Shown: piece by piece, positions 7,939-64,000 of the stretch | Layout: each line of letters starts with the position of its first letter | Numbering within the stretch: position 1 is the stretch's first letter | Origin: Halorussus sp. MSC15.2 | GTDB taxonomy: Archaea > Halobacteriota > Halobacteria > Halobacteriales > Haladaptataceae | Assembly (NCBI RefSeq): GCF_010747475.1 | Contig: NZ_VSLZ01000007.1 | Location: forward strand, 124,001-188,000 | Length of the DNA: 64,000 nt | Reading direction: 5' to 3' | Translations under genes and position numbers: made by a program | Notes under the pieces: model-generated | What the model was told of the DNA's origin: nothing | The model's input: only the letters and a program-made list of their open reading frames with translations | Databases searched by the model: none

Positions 7939-8910
7939 ATGCCTATGATTTTCGAGAACCTACCGACGACACCCACGTCGGAGGAACTCATCGACAAGGC
8001 GTTCTCGCGGGCCGCGCGGGCGGGACGGGCCAAGAACGGGACCGAGGCCCAGCAGTCGATGCTCCAGACGGCGTCCAACATCCTGAGCGACAACATGCAG
8101 AACGTCGCCGCGGAGTGGCCGGACTTCGACGAGATTGACCCCTTCTACTACGAACTCGCCGACGCCATCGTGAACGTGGACGAACTTCGACAGAGCCTCT
8201 CTGAAATCCAGTGGGCCAGCAGGAAGACCCACGACATCGGACGCGAGTATCAGGGCAAACTCACGGGCGACGCCGACGCCGACCGCAAGATTCGCAAACA
8301 GGGGTTCGCCCGCCTCGCCGACATCGTCGAGGAGGTCGAAGACGACCTCCTGCGCGTCGGACAGGCCCATCAGGACCTCCGGCGCCTCCCCGAAATCGAC
8401 CCGAGCGAACCGACCATCGTCGTGGCCGGATACCCCAACGTCGGCAAGTCGTCGTTCGTCAACGCGGTCACGAACGCCCGGAACGAAATCGCGGAGTACC
8501 CCTTCACGACGAAGGGCGTCCGCGTCGGCCACTTCGAGCGCGACCACATCCGCTACCAGATAGTGGACACCCCCGGCCTGCTGGACCGACCCGAAGACGA
8601 GCGCAACGACATCGAGAATCAGGCGGTCTCGGCGCTGACCCACCTCGCGGACGCCATCGTCTTCGTGGTGGACGCCAGCGGGTACTGCGGCTACCCCCTC
8701 GACGCCCAACTCGAACTCCGGGACGCCCTCGCCGAACGCTTCGGAGACGTGCCGGTCCTCACTGTCTGCAACAAGTCGGACCTCTCGACCGACGTGGAGG
8801 CCGACGCCTACATGAGCGTCGAGAGCGGCGAGAACGTCGAGGGCGTGCTGGACGACGCCGTCGAGGCGGTCGGGTACGAACCGGAACTCCCCTTCGACGA
8901 CCGGGAGTAG
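7939..8910 (+). CDS. NOG1-family GTP-binding protein
   Basis: A 323-residue Obg/NOG1-type GTPase, expected to act in large ribosomal subunit assembly. An N-terminal helical domain (about 1-155) precedes the G domain: G1 GYPNVGKSS near residue 166, G2-region YPFTTKGV, G3 DTPGLLDRP, G4 NKSD near residue 279. Two ATGs are possible: 7939 (MPMIFENL) or 7945 (MIFENL). The second matches my recollection of haloarchaeal homologues, and a TTTTAAT box at about 7914-7920 is compatible with either. Its last 103 nt are overlapped on the other strand by the end of a TIGR00341 membrane protein. Confidence 0.93.
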   Translation: MPMIFENLPTTPTSEELIDKAFSRAARAGRAKNGTEAQQSMLQTASNILSDNMQNVAAEWPDFDEIDPFYYELADAIVNVDELRQSLSEIQWASRKTHDIGREYQGKLTGDADADRKIRKQGFARLADIVEEVEDDLLRVGQAHQDLRRLPEIDPSEPTIVVAGYPNVGKSSFVNAVTNARNEIAEYPFTTKGVRVGHFERDHIRYQIVDTPGLLDRPEDERNDIENQAVSALTHLADAIVFVVDASGYCGYPLDAQLELRDALAERFGDVPVLTVCNKSDLSTDVEADAYMSVESGENVEGVLDDAVEAVGYEPELPFDDRE

Positions 8911-52662: not shown

Positions 52663-53082
52663 ACCTCCCCGGAGGGCCGCACGCGAGTTAATCGTTACCC
52701 CGTTTCAGGCTCTCCGGAGCGCGCTGTCCCGTCCTCCGTTCGGTTCCGTTGCACCGGGAACGTTCGCCGCGTCGGAGAAGCGAGCGGCCGCTTCGACGGC
52801 GACCCCGCTCCGCCGACTCTCACGTCTTCCGCCGACCGTCGCTGTCTCCCGAACGAAGGCGTCGCTTCGATGGTAATCGCGTGTTAATCGACCGAAAACC
52901 CGTCCTGAACTGAGTCGGCGACCGTTGCAACCAAAGTAGGCCGTCCTTCCCGGGGCGGAACGTTCGTGAACGGACCTGAACGGACGACTACATTATCAGG
53001 GCGTATCGGCAATTCTCGGGTAGCAGAACGCGCCGACGGCGGACGCTCGTCCGCCGAGGGAGACGGGAGACACACTTTCAGG
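52663..53082. other. 420-nt gap, no gene recognised; upstream region of otsA
   Basis: No convincing gene on either strand; possible frames are short and non-acidic. An AT-rich patch near 52990 (ACATTATCAGG) could hold the otsA promoter, but it lies about 90 nt from the otsA start, so otsA may have a leader. The rest looks like ordinary intergenic sequence with no repeats seen. Confidence 0.5.
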
Positions 53083-54630
53083 ATGACAACGAACACGACA
53101 GGGGCGACAATCGAATCGGCCGCCGAGACAGTCGCCGACCTCTGCGAGGACCGCGAACTCGTCGTGGCATCGAACCGCCAACCGTACAGCCACTACTACG
53201 AGGACGGGGACGCCGTCAGCGTGGACCGCCCGGCGGGCGGTCTCACCGCGGCGCTGGACCCCGTGATGCAGGCCGCCGAGGGGACGTGGGTTGCGTGGGG
53301 CGACGGCGACGCCGACCGAGAGGTCGTCGGCCCGGACGACACCGTGGCTGTCCCGCCCGAGGACCCCGCGTACGACCTCGCACGCGTCTGGCTGACAGAC
53401 GAGCAGGTCGAGGGCTACTACCGCGGATACAGCAATCAAGTGCTCTGGCCGCTGTGTCACCTCGACACCGCGAAGATGAACCCTCGCGAGGAGTTCTGGC
53501 GCGAGTACCGCGAGACCAACGCCGACTTCGCCGACGCGATTCTCGACTCGACGGACGGCGCGGGAAGCGACCCCGTAGTCTGGTTTCAGGACTACCACCT
53601 CGCGCTGGCCCCGCGGCGGGTCCGGGACGCCCGGCCCGACGCCTTCCTCGCGCACTTCTGGCACATCCCGTGGCCGTCTCGGGACGTGTTCCGGGCGTGC
53701 CCGCAGTACGAGCAACTGCTCGACGGACTGCTCGCCAACGACCTCGTGGGCTTTCACACCGAGGACTACTGCCGGAACTTCCTCGACTGCGTGGAGGCCG
53801 CGACCGACGCCCGCGTGGACCGGGCCAGCGGTAGCGTCTCGTACCGCGGCCACCGGACCTTCGTGCGGTCGTTCCCGCTCGGCATCGACGCCAGCAGGCA
53901 GGCAGACCTCGCCGAGTCCGACGAGGCCGACGAGTGGTGGGCCGAGTTCCGCGACGCCCACGGTATCGACCCGAGCGACACCCTCGCGGTGGGCGTCGAG
54001 CGCCTCGACTACACCAAGGGCATCGAGCAGCGCCTCGCCGCGCTCGAACGCTTCTGGGCCGACAACCCCGAGCGGCGCGGCGAGTTCACCTACGTCCAGA
54101 AGGGGACCGAGAGCAGGTCGGGCATCGAGGCCTACGACCGACTGCAGGACCGCGTGGCCGCCGAAATCGAGCGCATCAACGACCGGTTCGGCACCGACGA
54201 CTGGACGCCGGTGATATACACGACCGACCACCTCCCCGAGGCGGCCATCGCCGCGCTCTACCGCGAGGCCGACCTCGGTCTCGTGACGCCGGTCCGCGAC
54301 GGGATGAACCTCGTCGCAAAGGAGTACGTCGCGGCCCAGACCCGCGACCCCGGCGTCCTCGTGCTGAGCGAACTCGCGGGCGCGACCGACCAGTTGGGCG
54401 ACGAGGCCGTCCTCGTCCACCCCTACGACACGCCGGGCTTCGCCGACGGCATCGCCGAGGCGCTCTCGCTGTCGCTGGCCGAGCGCCGCACGCGAATCGC
54501 GGACCTCCAGCGCGAGGTCCACGCCAAGGACGTCTACGAGTGGCTCGAATCCACCTTCGAGACCGCCGCCGCCGTCGAACGCGGCCGGCGCTCGCTCCGG
54601 CAGAGCAGACCGAGTCCGACCGACGACTGA
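53083..54630 (+). CDS. otsA: Trehalose-6-phosphate synthase
   Basis: A 515-residue GT20 glucosyltransferase making trehalose-6-phosphate from UDP-glucose and glucose-6-phosphate. Conserved blocks: [55 protein letters not shown] (phosphate-binding) and [18 protein letters not shown]. Forms an operon with otsB 43 nt downstream. In haloarchaea trehalose supplements KCl as an osmolyte at low or fluctuating salt. ATG 53083 ([13 protein letters not shown]) is chosen as it gives the right fold start. Confidence 0.95.
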
Positions 54631-54673
54631 CGCGGGCGACGACTCGACGCTCGCACGACATCCGCATCCACCG

Positions 54674-55636
54674 ATGGCAGACCCCACCGACCCAGACCAC
54701 GACCGCGACGGCGGCACCGCCCCGGACGACAGTACCGGCGACGAAGTAGCTTCGGACGACGACGCCGACGACCCCAACGCCGACGGCCCGGACGATGCGG
54801 ACGCCGAGATTCCGGCGCGACTCCGCGAGAACCTCTACGTCGTCGTCGAGGAACTCGCGGACCACGACGGTCTGCTCGTCGCGCTCGACTTCGACGGCAC
54901 CCTCGCCGCCATCGAGAACCGCCCGGAGGAGGCGACGATTCCGGACCCGACACGCGAGGCCGTGGCGTCGCTAGCCCACGAACCGAACGTCGAGGTCGCG
55001 GTCGTCAGCGGCCGGGAACTGGCCGACGTGCGCGAGCGCGTCGGCGTCCCCGACATCTCCTACGCCGGGAACCACGGTCTGGAAATCCACGCCGACGAGT
55101 ACACCGTCCACCCGACCGCGAGCGCGGCCGAGGAGGACATCGCCGAACTCTGCGACCTGCTGACCGACGAACTCGCCCACGTCGAGGGCGTCATCGTGGA
55201 GAACAAGGGCGTGACCGCCACCGTCCACCATCGACTCGTGGACGACGACGAGGTGCCCGCGGTCGTGGACGCGGTCGAGACGCTGGTCGCCGCCCGCGAC
55301 GACGTGCGCCTGACCACCGGCAAGGACGTACTGGAACTCCGGCCCGCGGTCGAGTGGGACAAGGGCGAGGCGGTCCGTGAACTCCGGGAGGAACTCGTCC
55401 CCGACGACGAGCGCTGGCTTCCGGTCTACGTCGGCGACGACACGACCGACGAGGCGGCCTTCCTCCACGTCGGCGACCGTGGTCTCGGCGTCAAGGTGGG
55501 CGACGACCCCGACACCGAGGCCCCGTATCGCGTCGCCGACTCGGAGGCCGTCCGCACGATACTGGAGTGGTTGCACGAGTACGGCGTCGAGTTCGTCGGG
55601 ACCGACCACCGCGACGTCTCCGGCGGGCCGTCGTGA
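54674..55636 (+). CDS. otsB: Trehalose-6-phosphate phosphatase
   Basis: A 320-residue HAD phosphatase. The first 45 residues are an acidic disordered leader. HAD motif I is VALDFDGTLAAIENRPEEA, with nucleophile and acid Asp; VVSGRELADVRERVG is motif II; KGEAVRELREELVPDDERW and YVGDDTTDEAAFLH are motifs III-IV. It dephosphorylates the product of OtsA to trehalose. Immediately follows otsA in the same direction. Confidence 0.94.
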   Translation: MADPTDPDHDRDGGTAPDDSTGDEVASDDDADDPNADGPDDADAEIPARLRENLYVVVEELADHDGLLVALDFDGTLAAIENRPEEATIPDPTREAVASLAHEPNVEVAVVSGRELADVRERVGVPDISYAGNHGLEIHADEYTVHPTASAAEEDIAELCDLLTDELAHVEGVIVENKGVTATVHHRLVDDDEVPAVVDAVETLVAARDDVRLTTGKDVLELRPAVEWDKGEAVRELREELVPDDERWLPVYVGDDTTDEAAFLHVGDRGLGVKVGDDPDTEAPYRVADSEAVRTILEWLHEYGVEFVGTDHRDVSGGPS

Positions 55637-59255: not shown

Positions 59256-59329
59256 GGGTCCGTGGTCTAGTTGGTTATGACGCGGCCTTTACAAGGCTGA
59301 GGCCGGTGGTTCGAATCCGCCCGGACCCA
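59256..59329 (+). tRNA. trnV: tRNA-Val (anticodon TAC)
   Basis: A complete 74-nt cloverleaf with discriminator A. The acceptor GGGTCCG pairs with CGGACCC; anticodon stem CGGCC/GGCTG closes loop TTTACAA, giving anticodon TAC; T-arm GGTGG-TTCGAAT-CCGCC. CCA is not encoded. No intron. Its last 22 nt are copied once, with one mismatch, 111 nt downstream. Confidence 0.95.
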
Positions 59330-59333
59330 TCGA

Positions 59334-59337
59334 TTTT
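59334..59337 (+). terminator. T4 run following tRNA-Val
   Basis: Four T directly after the tRNA (CGATTTTATC), a likely archaeal termination signal; a similar GTTTTATC sits after tRNA-Phe. Confidence 0.3.
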
Positions 59338-59418
59338 ATCCGCGAACGAAGTGAGCAGTCGAATCTGTGACGGAGGGCGATTCGAAGCCCGAAAGACGAG
59401 CGGAGCGAGTCTTTCTCC

Positions 59419-59440
59419 GGTTCGAATCCACCCGGACCCA
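59419..59440 (+). repeat. Duplicate of the tRNA-Val 3' end (att-like)
   Basis: Twenty-two nt matching tRNA-Val 59308-59329 with one change (CCGCCC to CCACCC). It contains the T-loop TTCGAAT and acceptor end but no anticodon or D arm, so it cannot be a tRNA. Such tails are what integrases leave behind at tRNA attachment sites. The segment between the copies carries hairpins (AAAGAC...GTCTTT). Confidence 0.7.
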
Positions 59441-59751: not shown

Positions 59752-60573
59752 TCAGTCGATTTCGGCACGGACGAACGAGAGGTAGCCGAGGGCCGGTGGG
59801 ACGACAATCCAAGTGAGCAGCACGCCGACCACGGTGACGGTGCTGACCGACTCGCTCGTCTCGAACGCTCCGCCGGGGAGGAGCCGGAGCGACCGGAAGT
59901 ACGCCTCGGCGGGACTCAACGTGGTGAAGACCTGCCAGACGCCGCCGGAGAGTTGGACCCCCAGCAACAGGTCCGCCGCGCCACCGATAACCTGTGGGAC
60001 GGTGATGGGCGAAACGCGCGACCACAGGAGCGTGAACACGGAGTACATCACGACGGTGTTGGTCATCGCTCGCCTTCGACTGTCGCTCGCGGCGGAGACG
60101 GCGACACCGATACCGACGTACGACCCCGCGAACAGGAGCGTGAGACCACCGAACGTCGCAACCGCGTCGAGTCTCGGCCGGTCGAACATCTGCGTCGACA
60201 CCGCTCCGGCGAGGAGGAAGGCGAGTCCGACGGCCGCCGAGACCAGCCCCAACCGCGAGGTGTACTTACCGAGTAGTACATCGCTCCGTTCGAGCGGGTA
60301 CCCGAGGAGGAACCGAATCGTCCCGGAGTCGCGCTCACCCGCGATGGTGAGGTAACTCGCGAGTAGCGACACCAGCGGCACGAACAGGAGACCGACGAGC
60401 ACCGTGAGCTGAATCGCCGTGTAGACCGTCTGGCCCTCGGTAAGGCCGACGCCGACGAAGAGAATACCCACGAATAGAACGTACAGTCCGAGAACCGCCT
60501 GCATCAGTCGGCCGCGCCGGATGTCCAACAGGTCCTGCCGGACGACGCTGACCACCGAACCGAAGTCGGTCAC
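59752..60573 (-). CDS. ABC-2 type transporter permease
   Basis: A 273-residue membrane protein with six hydrophobic segments and a large loop after the first helices that has LTIAGERDSGTIRFLLGYPLERSDVLLGK, the typical ABC-2/NosY-like permease motif. It works with the ATPase encoded immediately upstream (60570-61528): the ATPase stop and permease start overlap as ATGA (60570-60573). The exported substrate is unknown. Confidence 0.92.
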   Translation of the reverse strand: MTDFGSVVSVVRQDLLDIRRGRLMQAVLGLYVLFVGILFVGVGLTEGQTVYTAIQLTVLVGLLFVPLVSLLASYLTIAGERDSGTIRFLLGYPLERSDVLLGKYTSRLGLVSAAVGLAFLLAGAVSTQMFDRPRLDAVATFGGLTLLFAGSYVGIGVAVSAASDSRRRAMTNTVVMYSVFTLLWSRVSPITVPQVIGGAADLLLGVQLSGGVWQVFTTLSPAEAYFRSLRLLPGGAFETSESVSTVTVVGVLLTWIVVPPALGYLSFVRAEID

Positions 60574-61528
60574 GCCGACACCTCCGTTTCCTCGGGGCGC
60601 GACGTCGCCGTCCTCTCACCGGCGTCCGCACTTCCCGTTAGCGCCGTGAACGTGTCTTCGAGGCTCCCTTCGTCTACCTCGAAGTCGGCGACGCCGCCGG
60701 CCCGTTCGAGTGCTGCTATCACTCGCCCCTTCGCCCGCGCCCGTCGGCACGAGACGGTGACGCGTTCTCCTTCGACCTCCGCCTCCTCGACACCGTCGAG
60801 GTCCGCGAGTACCTCGGGTCGAACCGGTGGCTCGGCGACTGTCGCCCGCACGACCGTGTCGTCCGTCCATCGCTCTCTGAGGGTATCGATGCTGTCCACC
60901 GCTGCCATCTCTCCCGCCCGCATCACGCCGACGCGGTCGCTGACAGCCTCGACTTCGGGGAGGATGTGCGACGAGAAGAAGACGGTGGTCCCGGCGGCCG
61001 CCTCTTCGAGGACGACGTCTCGAATCTCCTGCATCCCGTTGGGGTCGAGTCCCGACTGGGGTTCGTCGAGGACGAGCAGGTCCGGGTCACCGGCGAGGGC
61101 AGTCGCCAGCGCCATTCGTTGTGCCATCCCGGTCGAGTACCCACCCGCCCGGCGGTCCCACGCGTTCGGGTCGAGACGACCCGAGAGAGCAACTCCTCCG
61201 GGTCGTCGTCTGCGTCTTTGATGCGAACCGCGGAGGCGACGTGTTCCCGCCCGGTTAGCCGGTCGTAGACCCCGACGTTCTCGGGCAACACGCCGGTTCG
61301 CGCCCGGAGCTGGCGCGACTCCGTCTCCACGTCGTGGCCCAGCACTGTTCCGCTGCCCGACGAGGGGGACATGTAGCCGAGTAGTACGTTGATAGTGGTC
61401 GATTTTCCGGCACCGTTGGGACCGAGGAAGCCGAACACTTCGCCCTCCTCGACCTCGAACGACAGGCCGTCGACGGCGGTTACGTCGCCGAAACGCTTCG
61501 TCAGATTTCTCGTCTCTATCACTGACAT
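60570..61528 (-). pseudogene. ABC transporter ATP-binding protein (DrrA/NosF-like), split by a 1-nt frameshift
   Basis: From ATG 61528 (MSVIETRNLTKRFG): Walker A GPNGAGKSTT near residue 40, then DPEELLSRV near residue 117, where the frame breaks near 61177. In the next frame follow GLDPNAWDRRAGGYSTGM (signature YSTGM), Walker B LLVLDEPQSGLDP and the D-loop, ending at 60570. Adding one G (GTCGGTCTC instead of GTCGTCTC) restores about 319 residues. All other motifs are intact, so a sequencing slip is likely. Partner of the permease above. Confidence 0.9.
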
Positions 61529-61742
61529 CCGGTCTTCGGTACCCGAATGACCGCAATAAAGGGGTGCGTCCGTTTTCGCCCCTGTATCGGCTTCAGCGGC
61601 CGATACACCCGGAATTTCGGCGTTGTAGCTCTCCTCGTTGCCGGGGTCGCTCTCCGGTCGATACACCACTGTAGCGACGAGATACTCGCGTACAACGATT
61701 CTCCGAGACCACCGTCACCGGTGGATATAACAACGTAAAAAG

Positions 61743-63188: not shown

Positions 63189-63288
63189 GTCGTCTGTGCG
63201 GTACGGTCTCGCGGAACAAAGTCGTTGTCCCGCCTCCGTCGTGGTGTTTCGAAACGCTTTTCTCTCTCATGTGCCTCGTTGCGAGTGC

Positions 63289-63362
63289 GCCGCCTTAGCT
63301 CAGACTGGGAGAGCACTCGACTGAAGATCGAGCTGTCCCCGGTTCAAATCCGGGAGGCGGCA
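63289..63362 (+). tRNA. trnF: tRNA-Phe (anticodon GAA)
   Basis: A 74-nt cloverleaf: acceptor GCCGCCT/AGGCGGC plus discriminator A; D-arm GCTC/GAGC; anticodon stem CTCGA/TCGAG with loop CTGAAGA, anticodon GAA; T-arm CCCGG-TTCAAAT-CCGGG. CCA not encoded. The last 23 nt recur exactly 157 nt downstream. Confidence 0.96.
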
Positions 63363-63496
63363 CTTCTCTGAACTCGACCGAACAGCGAGGCGTTTTATCG
63401 CCGAGCGATTCGTCGAGTTCTGAAAGTGTACCCGGTACGGATTCGAACCCTATCAGAGCCAGCCCGCGCAGCGAAGCGAGCAGGAACCTCTGATTT

Positions 63497-63519
63497 CGGT
63501 TCAAATCCGGGAGGCGGCA
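63497..63519 (+). repeat. Exact 23-nt duplicate of the tRNA-Phe 3' end (att-like)
   Basis: Identical to 63340-63362 (T-arm half through discriminator). It has no anticodon region. Such a copy is expected when an element integrates at a tRNA and regenerates its end. Between the copies lie short hairpins, including one with TCAGAG and CTCTGA arms. Confidence 0.75.
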
Positions 63520-63584
63520 TATTCCTGCGGCCGACAACACGAACGAGCGTAGCGAGTGAGCTGTCGTCGGTGAGTCTGCATCCC

Positions 63585-63604
63585 GAGAAGATTTGAATCT
63601 TCTC
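63585..63604. repeat. 20-bp palindrome GAGAAGATT-TG-AATCTTCTC
   Basis: Perfect 9-bp arms with a 2-nt centre. It resembles a T-arm at first sight, but the closing G53-C61 pair is absent. It lies about 60 nt beyond the stop of the edge gene and could be its terminator or a boundary of an inserted element. Confidence 0.5.
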
Positions 63605-63661
63605 CGTTACAATTCAATCGATGACAAACCCTGCAAGCCCTACTTCCATTTCGCGCCAGTT

Positions 63662-64000
63662 CTAGTGTATTCCCCGGTACTCGTCCCGGTCTTCGTCACT
63701 CCTCGATGAAGTTCGTTCAACTGGTCCGGACGCTTTGTTCTTTACTACGCTCTTCCAACTACTCGACAATATTCCGGACGACTTGACCCAGAGGGAACCG
63801 CACGTCTTACAGCCAACGACCGATGGTGTCGAAACCGTCTTTTTCCGTAGCGTGGCTTTGTACGTAATCTCGAACTCTGAGTCTTCGGCGGTGTACTGGT
63901 AGAGTTTGTTCCCTTCGGTGTCACAAACCGGGCAGCACTCGCCGATTGGTGTGTCACCTCGCTTTTCGGTTCCTTCTTCTCGGAACTTGACGAACTTGTT
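63662..64000 (-). CDS. Zinc-ribbon protein, partial (start lies beyond the window)
   Basis: Reading leftward from the window edge: at least 112 residues ending with a stop at 63662-63664. Two paired cysteines (GECCPVCDTEG and GCKTCGSLW) about 38 residues apart form a zinc ribbon around TYKATLRKKTVS; the tail is polar (SSSWKSVVKNKA, SRSDEDRDEYRG). Base composition is lower in GC than the chromosome average, and it lies beyond the duplicated tRNA-Phe end, so it may belong to an integrated element. No known family recognised. Confidence 0.6.
   Translation of the reverse strand, partial: NKFVKFREEGTEKRGDTPIGECCPVCDTEGNKLYQYTAEDSEFEITYKATLRKKTVSTPSVVGCKTCGSLWVKSSGILSSSWKSVVKNKASGPVERTSSRSDEDRDEYRGIH

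What the first reader, a model, noticed from the sequence alone, without database searches (positions are those of the whole stretch)
63289..63519. tRNA-Phe followed by an exact 23-nt copy of its 3' end
A second tRNA 4 kb away shows the same arrangement, here without mismatch and 157 nt apart. Lower-GC sequence and a partial zinc-ribbon gene lie beyond it, so an integrated element may extend past the window.
Basis: seen in the sequence. Interest (0 to 1): 0.52.

Follow-up and report, generated by a model that had tools for sequence, protein, structure and literature searches.

The report
Gene-free cassettes trailing haloarchaeal tRNA genes
Behind this tRNA gene sits a short gene-free DNA cassette that ends in a copy of the tRNA's own tail; the same kind of cassette trails about a third of the tRNA genes in this salt-loving archaeon and recurs in nearly all of its relatives that were searched, apparently gained, lost and reordered much as cassettes are in bacterial integrons.

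Summary
In detail: tRNA-Phe (63289-63362) is followed by an exact 23-nt copy of its 3' end (63497-63519). It is not a one-off. In the window's own genome 13 of 43 tRNA genes carry a near-exact copy of their own 3' end within 600 nt downstream, 0 of 43 upstream, with unit lengths of 155-167 or 111-115 nt. Each unit has the same build: a palindrome, then a conserved imperfect palindrome whose 3' arm is the copy of the tRNA tail (T-loop to discriminator base). A covariance model of it hits 375 of 392 genomes sampled from the order, and only two outside it, marginally. Units form arrays (A-A-A-B-A', A-B-C-B'), are present or absent core-to-core between sister species, and change order. None holds a gene; mismatches in the palindromes show no RNA-like strand bias. 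True integrase-bearing elements use the same tRNA-proximal core and push units downstream. The contig ends 101 nt after the window, but another contig end carries the far junction, so an element probably starts after 63519. Best reading: minimal att cassettes turned over by recombination at the 22-bp core; the enzyme is not shown.

The parts
63289..63362 (+). tRNA-Phe (gaa), anchor of the array
   Evidence: ARAGORN and Rfam RF00005, 65.5 bits
63363..63424 (+). HP1: first palindrome of the unit, directly after the tRNA; no gene assigned
   Evidence: fold of the unit and symmetric palindrome search; boundaries by eye
63437..63519 (+). HP2: conserved second palindrome ending in the copy of the tRNA tail
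   Evidence: covariance model R1, E 2.0e-20
63497..63519 (+). exact 23-nt copy of the tRNA-Phe 3' end (core)
63520..63581 (+). HP1-like palindrome after the second core; related flank also at the C3 contig end and in G012
63582..64000 (.). lower-GC DNA, probably the left part of an integrated element that continues past the contig end
   Evidence: GC profile, contig end, C3 junction and G012 synteny; inference
63662..64000 (-). partial ORF with paired cysteines, no Pfam match
59256..59329 (+). tRNA-Val (tac), second anchor
59330..59440 (+). 111-nt unit of the short class behind tRNA-Val, ending in a copy of its 3' end with one mismatch
   Evidence: R1 E 2.8e-5

Best explanation
The 157-nt stretch is a gene-free cassette: two palindromic arms plus a 22-23 bp core identical to the 3' end of the host tRNA (T-loop to discriminator base). 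It is one of a family found behind many tRNA genes throughout the Halobacteriales. A circle of one cassette would be a minimal attP: arm HP2, core, arm HP1. I propose that cassettes are inserted next to, removed from, and reordered at the tRNA by recombination at the core, most likely by the tyrosine integrases of resident elements that use the same site, with homologous recombination between cores contributing. Shown: the anatomy, the exact core limits, the order-wide spread, the tRNA anchoring, arrays, core-to-core presence/absence, order changes, and full integrase elements at the same core. Inferred: that an integrase acts on the cassettes, that a circle exists, and the direction (gain or loss) of each change.
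For: 13 of 43 own tRNAs with a downstream copy, 0 of 43 upstream, two length classes. Of 67 tRNAs with a copy, identity starts sharply at position -22 and runs to the discriminator base. 16 R1 hits at E<=1e-4 in the genome: 14 just behind a tRNA, one 27.8 kb behind tRNA-Val(cac) beyond an integrase-bearing element, one orphan partial. 375 of 392 order genomes hit. Arrays of repeated and mixed units. Core-to-core indels at Ser-gga, Leu-tag and Asn-gtt between sister genomes, and changed order at Arg-gcg and a tRNA-Glu with 93-94% identical upstream flanks. G016, G023, G027 carry 8.6-10 kb elements with Pfam Phage_integrase genes next to the distal core at the same tRNA-Phe. In G027 and G076 the tRNA keeps its own T-arm letters while the next copies differ there, which places the exchange 3' of that point.
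Against: No free form: 0 viral contigs with the Phe core or two HP2 patterns, no plasmid or phage hit. None of the 14 units directly behind a tRNA in G000 lies within 30 kb of a PF00589 match, so an enzyme would have to act in trans. The arms of the integrase elements at tRNA-Phe differ from HP2. Repeated neighbours are often near identical, which plain unequal crossing-over or gene conversion also gives. Direction of change was not resolved; at tRNA-His 3 of 18 congeners have a unit, all different.
Confidence: 0.5

Rival explanations
1. Homologous recombination only: an old tandem array is expanded, contracted and homogenised by unequal crossing-over and gene conversion between 22-bp cores and HP1 arms in polyploid cells; no site-specific enzyme is involved today.
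For: Identical neighbours (G076 three identical 122-nt units, G295 two identical 266-nt units); terminal HP1 98% like the unit's own HP1 in G012 His; the Lys-ttt difference breaks inside HP1, not at the core; repeat-mediated deletions, including partial tRNA duplications of 22 and 43 bp, are reported for Haloquadratum (passages of PMC3119063). Polyploidy is recalled, from no call.
Against: 22 bp is short for homologous exchange (general knowledge); unlike units are interspersed in one array; HP1 types at tRNA-Phe occur in circular order W-Y, Y-Z, Z-W in three genomes (the Y link is only 33 nt at 85%), which deletion from one linear ancestor does not give.
Confidence: 0.22
2. Footprints: each unit is merely what is left of an ordinary integrated element after its inside was deleted.
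For: Same core and place as full elements; some units (G001 first, G008 second, G295, G076 fourth) have arms like those of integrase elements, some including a copy of the anticodon arm.
Against: Random deletion does not give two tight length classes with the same two palindromes at ten and three different tRNAs of one genome, nor a covarying HP2 shared across an order; no element with HP2-type arms was found here.
Confidence: 0.18
3. Functional RNA or terminator: the unit is a structured trailer of the tRNA transcript kept by selection on RNA folding.
For: Strong folds and covariation in HP2 (88.2% of cells paired against 81.2% in shuffles, covariation score 0.260 against 0.144). In the helix formed with the tRNA copy in that alignment G-U outnumber A-C 27 to 8.
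Against: In the larger set G-U and A-C mismatches are equal (51 and 50; core pairs 23 and 17), while tRNA stems used as control give 49 and 5; several rows of the small alignment are out of register. About two thirds of the tRNAs do without; presence changes between sister species.
Confidence: 0.1

Closest known systems
tRNA-targeted integrative elements of archaea and bacteria (Islander type)
   Same: Intact tRNA, displaced fragment of its 3' end downstream in the same orientation, same core as full elements at this tRNA.
   Different: 110-170 bp, no gene, no integrase; Islander discards candidates under 2 kb or without integrase (passages of PMC4383910), so such units would be filtered out.
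Partial tRNAs noted in Haloferax gibbonsii LR2-5
   Different: The passages read describe no conserved unit, palindromes, arrays, spread or turnover; supplements were not read.
tyrT (RtT) repeats of Escherichia coli
   Same: Recalled, from no call: about 178-bp tandem repeats behind a tRNA-Tyr gene, each with about 19 nt of the tRNA 3' end.
   Different: One tRNA locus of enterobacteria against many tRNAs of a whole archaeal order; Rfam reports no RtT match for the window.
Integron cassette arrays
   Same: Cassettes ending in an imperfect palindrome, in arrays of varied order next to an anchoring site; works like, not a member.
   Different: No gene in the cassette, the anchor is a tRNA, the core is specific to each tRNA; integron integrases were not looked for.
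Miniature non-autonomous elements (MITEs, cis-mobilisable elements)
   Same: Gene-free, short, would need an enzyme in trans.
   Different: No terminal inverted repeats flanked by a target duplication of the usual kind were seen; the repeat is the tRNA end itself.

Membership tests
tRNA-integrated genomic island | intact tRNA with displaced 3' fragment downstream, same orientation | tested here: met
tRNA-integrated genomic island | integrase gene within the interval | tested here: not met
   157-nt interval; the only PF00589 match of this contig is at C7:118858, about 68 kb away
tRNA-integrated genomic island | size of kilobases with cargo genes | tested here: not met
   units 111-167 nt in G000
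Integron cassette | imperfect palindrome at the cassette end, arrays with variable order | tested here: met
Integron cassette | attC boxes recognised by an IntI integrase; nearby intI and attI | not tested
   no attC or IntI model was run; PF00589 genes in G000 were only located
E. coli tyrT / RtT repeat | match to the Rfam RNA family | tested here: not met
   cmscan of the window at gathering level and of 63250-63700 at E up to 10 lists no RtT
Structured RNA | strand-specific tolerance of G-U over A-C in stems | tested here: inconclusive
   51 against 50 overall, tRNA control 49 against 5; 27 against 8 in one helix of a small alignment
Structured RNA | transcript | not testable with these tools
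   no expression data
MITE or casposon | terminal inverted repeats, transposase or Cas1 with target duplication | not tested
   no TIR seen by eye; no Cas1 search was made

The most novel reading that the evidence does not exclude
Haloarchaea hold a chromosome-wide, tRNA-anchored cassette system: gene-free cassettes whose only content is a recombination site in two palindromic arms are inserted at the tRNA-proximal core, stacked, excised and reshuffled by tyrosine integrases in trans, each with the core of its own tRNA. It would be an integron-like system without genes, perhaps serving as a buffer that keeps incoming elements from the tRNA or as a platform for them.
Probability: 0.25. Interest if true: 0.85.

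Novelty: new variant of a known kind. Interest (0 to 1): 0.62.

Why it matters
A repeat family that sits behind many tRNA genes in almost every haloarchaeal genome sampled, with a core cut to the same tRNA position at many isotypes, has apparently been filtered out or listed only as 'partial tRNA'. If the cassettes move, they are among the smallest site-specific mobile units and may show how tRNA-targeting integrases change their target; if they only recombine homologously, they are a ready record of recombination between 22-bp repeats in these archaea. Either way they must be known to call the ends of haloarchaeal integrated elements correctly.

Tried and rejected
Chance repeat: rejected. Rfam family: none. 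Free forms in viral contigs, plasmids and phages: none found. Reading beyond the contig: impossible, it ends after 101 more bases. An RNA reading was tested by the balance of G-U and A-C mismatches and lost support, though one small helix count went the other way. That HP2's 5' arm is always fitted to its own tRNA: only partly true; in 9 of 24 units of G000 and G012 no other tRNA tail of that genome pairs better, in the others one or more do. Direction of change by an outgroup: the Ser-gga flank is not conserved enough in the genus; at tRNA-His 3 of 18 have different units. Counts use a relaxed match (up to 5 edits), so some of its 92 segments may be false. The sample is biased: 146 distinct tRNAs, of which only the G000 and G012 sets were taken without regard to units.

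Full report
1. The observation. tRNA-Phe lies at 63289-63362. The last 23 nt of the gene recur exactly at 63497-63519, same strand; no other copy is in the window or, with up to 3 mismatches, in the 4.4-Mb genome. The second tRNA, tRNA-Val at 59256-59329, has a copy with one mismatch ending at 59440. The genus is Halorussus by inference: contig G022:C3 of the same genus has the length of a named Halorussus ruber scaffold and the same match.

2. Beyond the window. The window is G000:C7:124001-188000 and the contig ends at 188101. A similarity search showed that the end of contig C3 carries, in the matching orientation, 14 nt of the tRNA-Phe end with one mismatch and a flank, 82% like the window from 63506 on. 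Next to it on one side lie a small gene and a DnaJ/Fer2 gene, on the other a Mrr-type endonuclease gene that runs to the contig end. In the sister genome G012 the tRNA-Phe end is at 1380959 and the small gene and DnaJ/Fer2 gene follow from 1381228. So an element probably lies between the two contig ends; this adjacency is inferred, not read.

3. The unit is not special to this tRNA. All 44 tRNA matches of the genome were taken (14 of them fetched). Of 43 that could be scored, 13 have a copy of their own last 22 nt (up to 4 substitutions) within 600 nt downstream; none of 43 upstream. The units from tRNA end to copy end measure 155-167 nt at ten tRNAs and 111-115 nt at three. All have the same build: a palindrome (HP1, much reduced in the short class) after the tRNA, then a longer imperfect palindrome (HP2) with, in most, a conserved inside, and with the copy of the tRNA end as part of its 3' arm (the tRNA-Val unit was left out of the alignment because it is the most divergent).

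4. Limits of the core. Over 67 tRNAs with a copy among 146 distinct tRNAs read, the mismatch rate falls from 0.57-0.66 at positions -24 and -23 to 0.15 at -22 and 0.07 or less from -21 to -7, and stays at 0.09 or less to the discriminator base. The search itself used the 22 positions with up to 5 substitutions, which caps the mismatches inside but does not make the sharp edge. In tRNA terms (numbering recalled) the copy runs from the last pairs of the T-stem through T-loop, T-stem and acceptor strand to base 73.

5. Spread. A covariance model of HP2 (R1, 26 of the 36 units in hand, the divergent ones left out) finds 16 places at E<=1e-4 in the own genome: 14 directly behind a tRNA, one behind an element at tRNA-Val(cac), one solitary partial match; ordinary tRNAs score E 0.01 or worse. 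In a sample of 392 genomes of the order 375 have a match at E<=1e-4, 338 of 345 good-quality ones, 89 of 95 genera (at most 10 candidates were scored per genome, so counts per genome are lower bounds). In a sample of 120 genomes of the phylum 20 match, 18 of them of the own order; the two others have one match each at E 3.0e-5 and 6.9e-5. Of 29 best-scoring loci read from the order search all 29 have a tRNA upstream on the same strand and 27 an ungapped copy of its tail. Named genomes with a tandem tRNA-Phe copy at this spacing: 11 contigs, among them Haloprofundus, Natronosalvus, Halocatena and Natronococcus.

6. Arrays. G076 tRNA-Phe: three identical 122-nt units, then a different 141-nt unit, then a relative of the first. 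G030 tRNA-Tyr: 128, 103, 148, 103 nt, where the second and fourth are near identical and the first and third share HP2 but not HP1. G295 tRNA-Phe: two identical 266-nt units, one of 152, then a relative of the first.

7. Turnover. G012 was compared tRNA by tRNA with G000. G012 has a unit at 11 of 48 scored tRNAs by the ungapped test; its tRNA-Phe unit, whose copy has an inserted base, is missed by that test and seen. Whole-unit differences: Ser-gga and Leu-tag (unit in G000 only), Asn-gtt and His-gtg (in G012 only). At Lys-ttt the break lies inside HP1. At Arg-gcg and at a tRNA-Glu gene the first HP1 of one genome is the last of the other and the reverse (44 nt at 91% with 58 nt at 95%; 54 nt at 89% with 61 nt at 90%), with 93% and 94% identical upstream kilobases. 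A three-unit ancestor with different losses would also explain each of these. At tRNA-Phe in the family, HP1 types follow each other W-Y in G022, Y-Z in G010, Z-W in G013, though the Y link rests on 33 nt. At tRNA-His 3 of 18 Halorussus genomes have a unit, each a different one.

8. Full elements at the same site. G016, G023 and G027 have two tRNA-Phe ends 10.1, 10.0 and 8.6 kb apart with a Phage_integrase gene beside the distal one. In G027 a further unit follows the distal copy, and the host-type letters of the core are found in the tRNA and in the outermost copy, not in the element's copy. In G000 a 27.7-kb stretch of 51% G+C with two integrase matches lies between tRNA-Val(cac) and a core copy, and a cassette follows it. 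So elements appear to enter at the tRNA-proximal core and displace cassettes outward. Their arms are palindromic too but are not HP2.

9. DNA or RNA. HP2 shows covariation above both controls, apart from the count of further pair types, which shuffles reach, so the palindrome is kept or re-made. If it were kept as an RNA, G-U should exceed A-C. Symmetric alignment of the arms gives 51 G-U and 50 A-C, against 49 and 5 in tRNA stems of the same genomes; for pairs with the core 23 and 17. The small alignment's core helix gives 27 and 8, with several rows out of register. I conclude that a DNA-level role is more likely, without excluding RNA.

10. What is in print. Ten searches were run. Seen: passages of PMC7921747 (partial tRNAs adjacent to full copies), passages and one section of PMC3119063, passages and one section of PMC8371274, passages of PMC4383910; the rest as search listings only. 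In these I found no description of the unit, its palindromes, its spread or its turnover; subscription papers and supplements were not searchable.

11. Verdict. I rate it a new variant of a known kind (gene-free att-type cassettes), with the cassette mechanism at 0.5 and an integron-like system as the boldest reading.

Noticed in passing
window 60570-61530 (minus): An ABC-type ATPase gene is split over two reading frames (ORFs 60570-61556 and 60923-61669), so it looks frameshifted, or the assembly is wrong there; the membrane-protein gene 59752-60573 next to it is open.
   Followed up: no
window 52966-55636: Two neighbouring genes read by eye as trehalose-6-phosphate synthase and phosphatase (otsA/otsB-like); not searched.
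   Followed up: no
G000:C1:1072336-1100008 (L245, L246): A 27.7-kb, 51% G+C stretch between tRNA-Val(cac) and a copy of its 3' end, with two Phage_integrase matches: an integrated element in the same genome.
   Followed up: partly
L010 1524-1655, L017, L247: A second class of units whose arm contains a copy of the tRNA-Phe anticodon arm followed by palindromes, like the ends of integrase-bearing elements.
   Followed up: partly
L101 about 8700-8779 (G027): The distal junction of the G027 element carries a tRNA-like stretch with a changed anticodon stem before the core.
   Followed up: no
G083 and other members of the order: 17 of 392 order genomes have no match to the unit model; several are small or incomplete genomes, but G083 is 99% complete and lacks it.
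   Followed up: no
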